A stretch of DNA of 64,000 nt from the NCBI RefSeq assembly GCF_001787335.1, contig NZ_CP014674.1, positions 1,692,501-1,756,500 of the forward strand, written 5' to 3'. Below are positions 44,265 through 58,480 of this stretch, piece by piece. Made by a program: the position numbers and the translations under genes. Every line of letters begins with the position of its first letter. Within the stretch, counting starts at the first letter, position 1. Source of the DNA: Kozakia baliensis (lineage in GTDB: Bacteria > Pseudomonadota > Alphaproteobacteria > Acetobacterales > Acetobacteraceae). The notes below the pieces were generated by a model. The model was not told the origin of the DNA. It saw nothing but the letters and a program-made list of their open reading frames with translations, and did no database searches.

Positions 44265-44476
44265 CGACGGCGCCTTCTTTTTGCATGCCAAAACCTGAAA
44301 CAAGGCTTTCACGCATAGAATCGCGCCAGTTGAGACGCAAAGCATTTGTGTTCTGGCGAAATAGTGTGGTAAGGGCAGCGACCTTACCGGATGACAGGCA
44401 TTCCGCCGGTCATTTCTGGGCATCGAGATGATAATTTAAGACCATGCATAATGGTCGGATAGGAGATGACAGACCC

Positions 44477-44680
44477 GTGCAGGTTCTGGTTCGTGACAAC
44501 AATGTTGATCAAGCGCTCAAAGCGCTCAAGAAGAAAATGCAGCGCGAAGGCGTTTTTCGTGAAATGAAACTGCGTCGCCACTTCGAGAAGCCCTCCGAGC
44601 GTCGCGCTCGTGAAGCGGCTGAAGCCGTGCGCCGCGCCCGCAAGATGGAGCGCAAGCGCCTGGAGCGTGAAGGCTTCTAA
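44477..44680 (+). CDS. rpsU: 30S ribosomal protein S21
   Basis: S21 is a small basic protein of the 30S subunit used in initiation. The sequence [20 protein letters not shown] followed by an Arg-rich helical tail is typical. The start is GTG at 44477, with AGGAG 11 bp upstream; the ATG at 44466 is out of frame and the one at 44444 would add a non-family extension. Length is 67 residues. A strong terminator follows. Confidence 0.95.
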
Positions 44681-44708
44681 TAAGCCTGTTGCTCACGAAG
44701 CAAAAAAT

Positions 44709-44739
44709 AGGGCCACCCCTCAGGGATGGCCCTTTTTTT
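44709..44739 (+). terminator. Rho-independent terminator of rpsU
   Basis: AGGGCCA (44709-44715) pairs with TGGCCCT (44727-44733), with an inner CCC/GGG pairing, and is followed by a run of seven Ts. It lies 29 bp past the rpsU stop codon. On the other strand an A-rich run provides Ts as well, so it could also stop motA transcripts. Confidence 0.9.
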
Positions 44740-44780
44740 ATCTATGATGCTGGCGTCTAGTAATTCGCGAAAAGCAATCC

Positions 44781-45650
44781 TCAAGCAGTCGCCGTAGATG
44801 AAGTCATTGCCTTTTCGAGTTCTTGAAAACGGGGCATGCAATGGCTCGGAATGTCCTTACGCCCAATCTCGATGCTGATCTGAGGCGCGCTTCCCTGCAA
44901 ATGCGCAACGAGAACAGAGCGAATGATCCGATGGTAGCACGCATCTTCGCCGACAATGCCGCCTAACCGCGCAGCGATTGGCGCAACAACGCCATAAGCT
45001 AGCAGAACCCCCAGAAACGTGCCGACAAGCGCCCCTGCGATCATTTCTCCAAGAATGACCGGCGGCTTACTGATCGATGCCATTGTCTTAATCACACCTA
45101 ATACCGCCGCCACGATACCCAAAGCGGGTAAAGCATCGGAAAGCGTCTGAAGCGCGTGCGGCAGGTGCATTTCTTCCTGAATATTCTTTTTCAGTTCGCG
45201 TGATATGGCCTCTTCGAACTGCACCGGATCATCGACATTCATCCCGATGAGGCGAAGATAATCGCAGACCAAATCACGCGTTTGCTCGTCTGATTTTATC
45301 TTGGGAAACGACGTGAAAATTGTGCTGTTTTCAGGCTCTTCCACATGACTTTCGATCGCCATATAGCCTTTCGCGTGCATCGATTTCAGAAGCTGGAAAA
45401 GCAAATTGAGTAAATCGATATAATCGGCGCGCGCGAAGCGTGGGCCTTTGAGCACCTGCTTTATTCCAGCAGGGATATGCTTCAGATCTACCAGAGAATT
45501 GGCCATAACGAACGAGCCGATCGCGGCCCCTAGAATGGTAATCAACTCGAAGGGCATCGATGCAAGAAGCGGCCCGATTGCGCCGCCAGAGGCGATAAAC
45601 GAGCCGAATACGCAGGCAAGCACGACACCGAAACCAATAAATAGAAACAT
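44781..45650 (-). CDS. motA: Flagellar motor stator protein MotA
   Basis: MotA is the proton-channel stator subunit that pushes the flagellar rotor. The 289-residue protein has the four transmembrane segments: residues 1-24, 33-52, about 170-190 (PALGIVAAVLGVIKTMASI, with the conserved Pro) and about 200-222 (IAGALVGTFLGVLLAYGVV). The cytoplasmic loop includes KGYMAIESHVEEPENS. It lies 15 bp downstream of the full-length motB frame, so motB comes first, opposite to the common motA-motB order. The gene itself is intact, but its partner is interrupted. Confidence 0.93.
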   Translation of the reverse strand: MFLFIGFGVVLACVFGSFIASGGAIGPLLASMPFELITILGAAIGSFVMANSLVDLKHIPAGIKQVLKGPRFARADYIDLLNLLFQLLKSMHAKGYMAIESHVEEPENSTIFTSFPKIKSDEQTRDLVCDYLRLIGMNVDDPVQFEEAISRELKKNIQEEMHLPHALQTLSDALPALGIVAAVLGVIKTMASISKPPVILGEMIAGALVGTFLGVLLAYGVVAPIAARLGGIVGEDACYHRIIRSVLVAHLQGSAPQISIEIGRKDIPSHCMPRFQELEKAMTSSTATA

Positions 45651-45665
45651 GATGGAAATCTGGCC

Positions 45666-46574
45666 TTATAGAATTTTTTCTGGAGGGATCGGTGGTGTCC
45701 GTCGCGTCAGTGTCAGAACCACACGCCGGTTGAGCGCTGCGCGAGGGTGTTCCGGGTCGGCCAAATCATGATCGGCTCGCCCCGCAACGCTCTGAAATCG
45801 CCATTCAGGCAGACCCGCCTAGACCAACACGGATCGCGCCGCCTCGGCGCGCAAAGCCGATAAAAGCCAGTTCGTCTTTTTTCCCGGCTGATAGGGCGTT
45901 GCATCCGTAAAACCGTCGATGCTCAGCATCCCTGGCATGGATTGGAGCACAGGCACCAGAGCGCGCAATAAAGCGATCGCATGTTCGTTTGGAACAGCCG
46001 TGCCCAATTCGAACATAGGCTGATGTTCCGCATCCGCAATGGAAATGCGCAATTCATTTGAGAAACCGCCTATATTAACCTGCGAAGCAGAAGGCTGATG
46101 CGCTAAAGCCGCGCGCACTTTCTCCGGCGCATGCCGGAACGCCTCTTCTTCGACTTTACTAGGTTCATGCTTCGCCTTTTGGGTAACTTCTTTTTGCTGG
46201 GAGATATCGAAGCGTGCCGATCGCGCTTGTTGGGCTTTCCCTAAAATGTCGTCATGGCGTGAGGCTGTGCTGGAAACAACAAACGGTTTTTGCAGCGCCG
46301 TTTGCGATGGTTGCGTCGGGGAAAGATTGTTGTCCTGAGTCGGATCGTCCCGTTCCGCAAAGGGATTGAAAAAGGCAGCAATCCCGCGACGCTGCTGTTC
46401 AGTGGTGGCGTTGATCAGCCACATGACGAGGAAAAACGCCATCATGGCCGTCATGAAATCTGCATAGGCAATCTTCCATGCACCGCCATGTCGGCCATCT
46501 TCTATAATTTCTTCACGCCGAATAATGATCGGACGCGCGGCATTGCTGCCTTTTCTGCCTTTTAGCGCCGCCAT
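45666..46574 (-). pseudogene. motB: motB interrupted by an in-frame amber codon
   Basis: MotB anchors the stator to peptidoglycan. The N-terminus is normal: a basic tail, then YADFMTAMMAFFLVMWL with the proton-path Asp, followed by the plug region. In the OmpA-like domain the frame stops at a TAG at 45819-45821, after ARSVLV. Reading on in the same frame to the TAA at 45666 gives AGLPEWRFQSVAGRADHDLA and then ALNRRVVLTLTRR, the expected end of the domain. CAG to TAG is the simplest change. As read, the product is 251 rather than 302 residues and lacks part of the peptidoglycan-binding fold. Confidence 0.85.
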
Positions 46575-46623
46575 CTTCCCTCCGATACTGAGAGGAAGAT
46601 GGTGGAAAAAATCTAATCAATCG

Positions 46624-48066
46624 TTAAGGAGATGGCAGTTTAACGGGACGCCAAGCGGCATCTTCAGGCGCTTTCAAAGCCCAAAGCCGATAACAAGCCA
46701 TGATCGCCTGGCGGTTATATCGACACACCAGCCCTTTACTTTCGCCCAGTTGCCAATCCGAAGGCACATCCGGTCTTTCTTTTTCTCTGACTAAAAGAAC
46801 GCCCTCGCCCGCGTTCCGCTGCGAAAGAGCGAAATAACCCCAGCGGCGATCCGCGCCATAGATCGCGAGAGGCTTGCCATAAAAGGCCAGTTCCGAGGCG
46901 ACTGCGTAATCGTTCACCGCAATATAGTTCGTCGTCGGCACCGTGTGTGCCAAATCTTTCCCCAATTGCTCCCAGCCACGAGCTTGGCGCGCAATAACAT
47001 CGTGATGGGCGGAAAGCGGCACGATAGAGAAAGCGGCCTGAAGATAAACCAACAAGGTCAGGCCTACGCCTAGCCCACATGCCGCACCGATCCGGTAACT
47101 GGTCGAGGCGGCCGCCAGCGCCAAAGCGGGATAGATGACAACCGGCCAGTTAGCCTGAACGCGCCCACCAAAAGCATGCTGCACGAATACTGCACATGGT
47201 ATCAAAATCATGAAGGCGAGAAGACGCTCTTCCTGATTGCGCACAGCCAAGCGCGCAACGCGCCATGTTCCGATGACGAACAGAATAAAAATAAGCGGCG
47301 TGGCAAGGCCGATCTGGCCTCCTAACAATTCCCCCAGGAATTGCAGGGCACGCGCCGGATGCCAATCGCCGGTGCGTCCACCCTGCTTCAAGAAGCTCGC
47401 CCAATCATGCGTGGCGTTCCAGATCATTACCGGAGACATCAGCACCAACGCCAAAATACCTGCCGTTATGACAGAGAACGCCTGACGCCAACGGGAACGA
47501 TCGCTTATCCACCACAAGGCGCAAGCCATGGCAGGAAGTGCGGCTGTATATTTGCTATCGAACGCCAGCCCGAAAATTCCGCCGATGACCAGCCACCAGC
47601 GATCCAAGCCCGTTCGGATCAAGCGCCCTAGCGCCCAAAGCGCAATGGTCAGAAAGAAAACCGTTGGGGTGTCCGGCGTCATCGTCGCCGCCCCGATGCC
47701 CAACATCAAGGTCGCGTTCAAAAGCGCGACCGCTCTCCATGAACCGGTTTGACGCGGCCAAAAATCACGCGCGGCTTGATGTAACGCCACGGAGCCGACC
47801 AGCGTGGAAACCGGCCCTAACCAACGCACGCCTAAAGCATTTTGCCCGAGAAGCGTTGTCCCGATCCGAATCCATATGGCGACCATCGGCGGATGATCGA
47901 GATAGCTGAGTTGGAGATGGCGCGACCAAACCCAGTAATAAGCTTCATCCGGCGTGAGCGGCAAAGACGCGGCCAAACCCAAGCGCAGGAACGTCGCTAT
48001 GCACAGAAATAACCAGATGAGACGTGTCTCTCGATCAACGCCAGACAAGAGTTGACGCCACCACAT
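46624..48066 (-). CDS. ArnT/PMT-like glycosyltransferase (GT39/GT83 type)
   Basis: This is a multi-pass membrane protein with about ten hydrophobic helices. The first periplasmic loop has PLTPDEAYYWVWSRHLQLSY and YLDHPPMVA, the Asp-containing motif of ArnT-like enzymes that take sugar from a polyprenyl-phosphate donor. It likely adds a sugar to lipid A, another lipid or a protein in the periplasm. The ATG at 48066 (MWWRQLL) is inside the end of the upstream glycosyltransferase gene, so the two overlap by 32 bp and are coupled. The earlier ATG at 48102 is also open. The acceptor is unknown. Confidence 0.85.
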   Translation of the reverse strand: MWWRQLLSGVDRETRLIWLFLCIATFLRLGLAASLPLTPDEAYYWVWSRHLQLSYLDHPPMVAIWIRIGTTLLGQNALGVRWLGPVSTLVGSVALHQAARDFWPRQTGSWRAVALLNATLMLGIGAATMTPDTPTVFFLTIALWALGRLIRTGLDRWWLVIGGIFGLAFDSKYTAALPAMACALWWISDRSRWRQAFSVITAGILALVLMSPVMIWNATHDWASFLKQGGRTGDWHPARALQFLGELLGGQIGLATPLIFILFVIGTWRVARLAVRNQEERLLAFMILIPCAVFVQHAFGGRVQANWPVVIYPALALAAASTSYRIGAACGLGVGLTLLVYLQAAFSIVPLSAHHDVIARQARGWEQLGKDLAHTVPTTNYIAVNDYAVASELAFYGKPLAIYGADRRWGYFALSQRNAGEGVLLVREKERPDVPSDWQLGESKGLVCRYNRQAIMACYRLWALKAPEDAAWRPVKLPSP

Positions 48067-57498: not shown

Positions 57499-57547
57499 AT
57501 GCTCGGAGTGGATTCACGGAATGAATCCAGACTGGTAGCTGGGAGTG

Positions 57548-58480
57548 ATGAGCAAGCCGAAAGCCACGCGATACCGTACGACGAACTGGTCCTCCTACAA
57601 CGCCGCGCTGAAGAAGCGCGGCTCTCTGACGGTATGGTTTGACCCATCCATGAATTGGGAGGGCCTTCCGACGGGACGTCGAGGACGGCGGCAGAATTAC
57701 AGCGACGCCGCGATCCAGAGTTGCCTGACGCTGAAAGTCCTGTTTGGCTTTGCGCTGCGACAGACGACGGGCTTTGTCGAAAGTCTCCTTCGTCTGGCTG
57801 GGCTGTCGTGGTCCGTGCCGGATTTCAGCACGCTGAGCCGTCGGCAGAAATCCCTGACGGTCGATATTCCGTATCGTAGTTCGGGCGGTCCGCTCCATCT
57901 CCTGATCGACAGCACCGGCATCAAGGTCGAGGGAGAAGGCGAATGGCACACCCGCAAACACGGGGCGTCAAAGCACAGGATCTGGCGCAAACTTCATATC
58001 GCGATCGATGAAGGATCACTGGAAATCAGGGCTGTTGAGATCACGAAAAACGATGTCGGTGATGCCCCAGTCCTACCGGCGCTTCTGGAACAGATCCCCG
58101 ATGAAGAGGACATCGCCTGCGTCACTGCTGATGGCGCGTATGATACAAGAAAATGCCACGAAACCATCGCCAACCGTGGCGCACAGGCTGTCATACCGCC
58201 TCGAAAAAACGCAAAACCATGGTGCCCCACATCACCAGGAGCCATCGCCCGCAATGAAGCCCTGCGGACGTGCGGGCATCTCGGGCGGGCTATCTGGAGA
58301 CGGTGGAGTGGTTACCATCGGCGAAGCCGCGTCGAGACAAAGATGCACTGCATCAAGCTGCTGGGCCAGCGTCTGACAGCACGCGATTTCGACCGCCAGA
58401 TCACCGAAGTTCACATCCGTGTGGCTATCCTCAATCGCTTCACAGCGCTCGGAATCCCTCTCACACACGCGGTCGCGTAA
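57548..58480 (+). CDS. IS5-family transposase (DDE type), intact
   Basis: The 311-residue DDE transposase has an N-terminal DUF4096-like DNA-binding part (YNAALKKRGSLTVWFD) and the catalytic residues Asp121 (LLIDSTGIKV), Asp195 (VTADGAYD) and Glu263 (RRSRVETKMH). No frameshift is seen, so the element may still be mobile. The ATG at 57548 is used; a GTG lies directly before it. Confidence 0.94.
   Translation: MSKPKATRYRTTNWSSYNAALKKRGSLTVWFDPSMNWEGLPTGRRGRRQNYSDAAIQSCLTLKVLFGFALRQTTGFVESLLRLAGLSWSVPDFSTLSRRQKSLTVDIPYRSSGGPLHLLIDSTGIKVEGEGEWHTRKHGASKHRIWRKLHIAIDEGSLEIRAVEITKNDVGDAPVLPALLEQIPDEEDIACVTADGAYDTRKCHETIANRGAQAVIPPRKNAKPWCPTSPGAIARNEALRTCGHLGRAIWRRWSGYHRRSRVETKMHCIKLLGQRLTARDFDRQITEVHIRVAILNRFTALGIPLTHAVA

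What the first reader, a model, noticed from the sequence alone, without database searches (positions are those of the whole stretch)
45666..46574. motB carries an in-frame amber codon in its peptidoglycan-binding domain
The frame stops at TAG (45819-45821), yet the same frame continues without a further stop into AGLPEWRFQSVAGRADHD and LNRRVVLTLTRR, the normal end of the OmpA-like domain. A single C-to-T change explains it. Either the strain has lost stator function, the codon is suppressed, or the read has an error. MotA next door is intact.
Basis: partly seen in the sequence, partly recalled or inferred. Interest (0 to 1): 0.6.

Follow-up and report, generated by a model that had tools for sequence, protein, structure and literature searches.

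The report
Broken flagellar stator gene, ordinary decay
In the acetic acid bacterium Kozakia baliensis the gene for a part of the flagellar motor is cut short by a stop codon, and a second essential flagellar gene is split by a jumping element, so this looks like ordinary recent loss of swimming ability and not a new mechanism.

Summary
motB (minus strand, 45666-46574) stops at an in-frame TAG at 45819-45821. The frame then stays open for 50 codons that encode the normal end of the peptidoglycan-binding domain. The tail is as similar to the nearest relative (25/48 aligned residues) as the part before the stop (125/250), so the stop looks young. In 107 of 109 homologues examined the frame runs at least 30 residues past this position.

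Chromosome length and assembly size match Kozakia baliensis DSM 14400, a finished PacBio assembly; a base error is unlikely but was not tested.

The only flagellar flhA found is split by a 3,340-bp IS66-family element with an 8-bp target duplication. Two further copies, at 1 and 0 mismatches, sit elsewhere in the genome. The other FlhA-like gene is a type III secretion SctV. Twenty-seven other flagellar genes recognised by Pfam are open.

Best explanation: motB is a recent pseudogene in a strain that probably cannot build flagella anyway. No suppressor tRNA was found, but that test was incomplete. This is ordinary gene decay; the split flhA is the useful addition.

The parts
45819..46574 (-). 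motB, open part: 251 codons with intact plug/transmembrane region and about two thirds of the OmpA-like domain, ending at TAG 45819-45821
45819..45821 (-). in-frame amber codon (TAG)
45666..45818 (-). remnant 3' part of motB: 50 codons and TAA, same frame, the end of the OmpA-like domain
   Evidence: 25 of 48 aligned residues identical to the nearest relative
44781..45650 (-). motA, intact, downstream in the same orientation
44709..44733 (-). terminator-like hairpin downstream of motA; consensus match only (3 found in 44400-46700, 3.2 expected by shuffling)

Best explanation
motB in this genome (Kozakia baliensis DSM 14400 by its sizes) is a recent pseudogene. Shown: the frame ends about two thirds into the OmpA-like domain while the rest of the domain remains in frame and undecayed, and the flagellar export-gate gene flhA is independently split by an IS66-family element. 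Inferred: the 251-residue product cannot anchor to peptidoglycan, so no working MotA-MotB stator forms; without full-length FlhA no rod, hook or filament is exported, so the cell is non-flagellate and selection on motB is gone. Which break came first is unknown.
For: Stop and intact tail. Identity to the nearest relative 125/250 before and 25/48 after the stop. 107 of 109 homologues continue at least 30 residues past the column; of the two others one is cut by its contig end (L023) and one aligns poorly, 55 of 232 identical, with 17 residues left (L077). One match only for this MotB in the genome. The genome has three FHIPEP (FlhA-family) matches in two places: one intact gene that is SctV (792.2 bits, over the hrcV cut-off of 692.25; 568.1 for FlhA, under 772.1) and one gene in two pieces that both match FlhA best. 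Between the pieces lies a 3,340-bp element with an IS66 transposase, matching terminal inverted repeats and an 8-bp duplication AGATATCA. Two further copies, at 1 and 0 mismatches, have their own 8-bp duplications. 27 other flagellar genes are open with Pfam matches.
Against: No expression or motility data were available. The passages I read state nothing on the motility of this strain (searches; several listed papers were not opened). No second strain could be compared, so strain-only or laboratory-only change cannot be told from species-wide change. Twenty-seven of 29 named flagellar genes being open argues against long-standing decay.
Confidence: 0.9

Rival explanations
1. Base error in the assembly: the living strain has a sense codon.
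For: One codon separates the sequence from an open frame, and the tail shows no other interruption.
Against: The sizes match a finished PacBio HGAP assembly; substitution errors are uncommon in such consensus sequence (general knowledge). The flhA insertion supports real flagellar loss and is not a base error.
Confidence: 0.06
2. The amber codon is read through by a suppressor tRNA or programmed readthrough, giving a full MotB.
For: The downstream frame is open and conserved.
Against: TAG is a routine stop here: 8 of 50 listed ORFs of 150 aa or more in the window, motB included. No CUA tRNA by pattern in the whole genome (the pattern finds 3 of 4 window tRNAs and misses the tRNA-Ser with a long variable arm) or by ARAGORN in the window and 13 fetched loci. 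None of the 108 homologues with a residue at that column has a stop there. With flhA split, a full MotB would have no motor to drive (inference).
Confidence: 0.02
3. The short MotB is functional as it is, as a lineage-specific truncated stator.
For: The plug and transmembrane region are intact.
Against: The end of the OmpA-like domain is lost and the domain falls below its cut-off, 107 of 109 homologues keep at least 30 residues there, and the lost tail still carries conserved residues.
Confidence: 0.02

Closest known systems
MotB, proton-channel stator subunit (Pfam PF13677 plug + PF00691 OmpA-like)
   Same: Plug, transmembrane segment, linker, and first two thirds of the peptidoglycan-binding domain; next to motA
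   Different: Ends 50 codons early at an amber codon
Loss of flagellar genes in Asaia (PMC6317953 and PMC8092202, passages read)
   Same: Acetic acid bacteria related to Kozakia that lose motility genes; some strains non-motile
   Different: There one strain has 6 annotated flagellar genes where the others have 30, and motility genes erode in insect symbionts; here two genes are broken and the 27 others recognised are open
IS66-family insertion sequences (element in flhA)
   Same: IS66 transposase, terminal inverted repeats, 8-bp target duplication, several near-identical copies
   Different: Carries a UPF0149/SEC-C passenger ORF; TnpA and TnpB were not identified
Transposon switch at gumD in K. 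baliensis NBRC 16680 (PMC5050591, PMC5553594, passages read)
   Same: Gene inactivation by mobile elements in the same species
   Different: A different, shorter element (about 1.3 kb by its printed coordinates) and an exopolysaccharide gene

Membership tests
MotB | N-terminal plug/transmembrane segment with the channel aspartate | tested here: met
   PF13677 64.9 bits, cut-off 24; D39 is invariant in a 3-sequence alignment; its channel role is recalled
MotB | Complete OmpA-like peptidoglycan-binding domain | tested here: not met
   PF00691 positions 2-65 of 98 only, 21.9 bits against cut-off 27.2; no NCBIfam MotB model over its cut-off either (best 169.5 against 342)
MotB | Partner motA adjacent | tested here: met
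   TIGR03818 339.4 bits, cut-off 303.8
Pseudogene | Frame interrupted relative to homologues | tested here: met
   107 of 109 homologues continue at least 30 residues
Pseudogene | Pathway inactivated elsewhere too | tested here: met
   flhA split by IS66
Pseudogene | No functional product | not testable with these tools
   needs proteome and motility assay
IS66 family (element in flhA) | IS66 transposase | tested here: met
   PF03050 305.1 bits
IS66 family (element in flhA) | Terminal inverted repeats and 8-bp target duplication | tested here: met
   three copies, three different 8-bp duplications; that 8 bp is typical of IS66 is recalled
IS66 family (element in flhA) | Accessory TnpA/TnpB genes | tested here: inconclusive
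   ORFs of 173 and 163 aa seen but not searched or assigned

The most novel reading that the evidence does not exclude
The flagellar apparatus is kept in a non-swimming form: the intact SctV of the type III secretion system could stand in for the split FlhA, and the truncated MotB would leave any such structure unpowered, so that retained flagellar genes serve secretion or attachment. Nothing here supports it directly; only the openness of 27 other flagellar genes fits it.
Probability: 0.02. Interest if true: 0.6.

Novelty: new member of a known kind. Interest (0 to 1): 0.15.

Why it matters
It gives a two-lesion genetic explanation for loss of flagella in one acetic acid bacterium, caught early: two genes broken, the 27 others recognised still open. 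It could be useful for timing motility loss in the Asaia-Kozakia group, and it warns annotators that this motB and flhA are probably not functional. It adds no new mechanism.

Tried and rejected
Same-genus comparison: only this genome is held for its genus, so close relatives could not be tested; the next best match is another genus at 50% identity. Plasmid search for motAB gave 82 records, none covering 80% of the query. First homologue count was faulty because minus-strand loci were read in the wrong orientation; one search replaces it, while the comparison of IS66 copies stands. Literature: five searches pairing Kozakia or Kozakia baliensis with flagella, non-motile, motile, nonmotile or motility led to no statement on this strain's motility in the passages I opened; several papers in those listings (for example PMC11858473) were not opened. 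My recollection that the species was described as non-motile in 2002 is unverified. Two searches for MotB truncation phenotypes listed one paper each and gave nothing that I used. Structure prediction was not run: it would not change the verdict.

Full report
Observation. On the minus strand, motB begins at 46574 and its frame meets TAG at 45819-45821 after 251 codons, then stays open for 50 more codons to TAA at 45666-45668. Pfam sees the MotB plug and only positions 2-65 of 98 of the OmpA-like domain, below its cut-off. Solved MotB periplasmic domains (2zvy, 5y3z) align with the open part up to its last residue, which falls at residue 129 of their 183. MotA next door is intact and over the curated MotA1 cut-off.

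Identity of the genome. The window lies in a contig of 2,888,029 bases in an assembly of 3,505,604 bases in 7 contigs. The chromosome length equals that printed for Kozakia baliensis DSM 14400, a PacBio HGAP genome of seven contigs (PMC5050591, passages read), and the total and contig number equal those printed for K. baliensis Yo-3T (PMC11493185, passages read). The printed contig lengths in PMC5050591 add up to 3,505,524, 80 bases less; one printed plasmid length (176,911) is 80 below contig C4 here (176,991), which would account for it.

Relatives. Only this genome is held for its genus. Of the 60 genomes, 43 have a match; both numbers include the window's own genome, so 42 of 59 others. 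In 107 of 109 the frame continues at least 30 residues beyond the column of the amber codon; L023 is cut by its contig end and L077 aligns poorly and has 17. The residue at that column varies (Ala 44, Glu 19, Ser 9, Asp 8, Gln 5 and others); it is Gln in the three Gluconobacter and the Neokomagataea sequences and Lys in the nearest relative, G024. Against G024 the identity is 125 of 250 aligned residues before and 25 of 48 after the stop, so the tail has not visibly decayed. No sequence in the sample is shown to share the short form.

Second lesion. The genome has three FHIPEP (FlhA-family) matches at two places. One, at C1:1168349-1170490, is intact but is a type III secretion SctV by curated cut-offs. 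The other is flagellar FlhA by best match, in two pieces, C1:1276449-1278032 and 1281309-1281863. It lies in a cluster with flgD, fliF, fliG and fliN. Between the pieces lies a 3,340-bp element, C1:1278007-1281346, with an IS66 transposase (305 bits), inverted ends GTAAGCGTGAGC... and flanking 8-bp duplications AGATATCA. Copies at C1:1488639 and on contig C4 (transposase positions) differ from it at 1 and 0 of 3,340 positions and have their own 8-bp duplications, CAAGAGCG and GATTTAAC. So the element moved recently and flhA is genuinely interrupted.

Rest of the system. Twenty-seven other flagellar genes are open and have a Pfam match over a cut-off: motA; fliC, flaF; flgE, flgK, flgL; flgD, fliF, fliG, fliN; fliP, flgB, flgC, fliE, fliQ, fliR, flhB; flgI and a rod-binding FlgJ-like protein; flgF, flgG, flgA, flgH; fliM, fliL; fliI, fliJ. 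FlgB/FlgC, FlgE/F/G and FlgK/FlgL share Pfam domains, and fliP, fliQ, fliR, flhB and fliI have type III secretion counterparts, so those names rest partly on size and gene order. Candidates for fliH, fliO, fliK and flgN are open but not named over a cut-off. Missense damage was not tested; fliD, flbT, regulators and chemotaxis genes were not sought.

Suppression and error. TAG ends 8 of 50 mechanically listed ORFs of 150 aa or more in the window, motB included, so it is an ordinary stop here. No tRNA with a CUA anticodon was found by a whole-genome pattern, which recovers 3 of 4 window tRNAs when their anticodons are put in, nor by ARAGORN in the window and 13 fetched loci. This is not a full tRNA list. 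Base error was not tested against reads.

Conclusion. Ordinary, recent gene decay: motB is a pseudogene in a genome whose flagellar export gate is also broken. That the truncated protein cannot anchor, and that the strain lacks flagella, is inferred from the known roles of the OmpA-like domain and FlhA (general knowledge). Loss of flagellar genes is already described in the related genus Asaia (PMC6317953, PMC8092202, passages read). I did not see the two K. baliensis lesions in print; the searches were made, and the find calls on the three K. baliensis papers opened returned no hit for flagell or motil in their main texts.

Noticed in passing
L117 16008-19347 (G000:C1:1278007-1281346): The 3,340-bp IS66-family element inside flhA carries a UPF0149/SEC-C passenger ORF (222 aa; 82 and 40.9 bits); three copies in the genome, one on contig C4.
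   Followed up: yes
L116 and L130 (G000:C1 about 1156000-1174000): A type III secretion cluster, separate from the flagellar genes, with intact SctV, FliP-family and ATPase genes, and FliQ- and FliR-like ORFs by eye; unusual company in an acetic acid bacterium as far as I recall.
   Followed up: partly
window 57545-58480: Transposase-like ORF (by eye, IS5-like) closely similar to an ORF at G000:C1:1151719-1152651 next to the type III secretion cluster (245 of about 311 positions identical without gaps).
   Followed up: partly
L139 4252-5378 (G000:C1:2159251-2160377): DUF6468 and MgtE_N-domain ORFs directly after fliL-fliM, both open; possibly flagellar in alphaproteobacteria.
   Followed up: partly
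window 44424-44780: Between motA and the def-like gene lies an rpsU-like ORF (44444-44680 +, by eye), as in G024 (L131); a Gluconobacter (L031) has a 705-aa ORF between motA and its def-like gene, so the neighbourhood differs between genera.
   Followed up: partly
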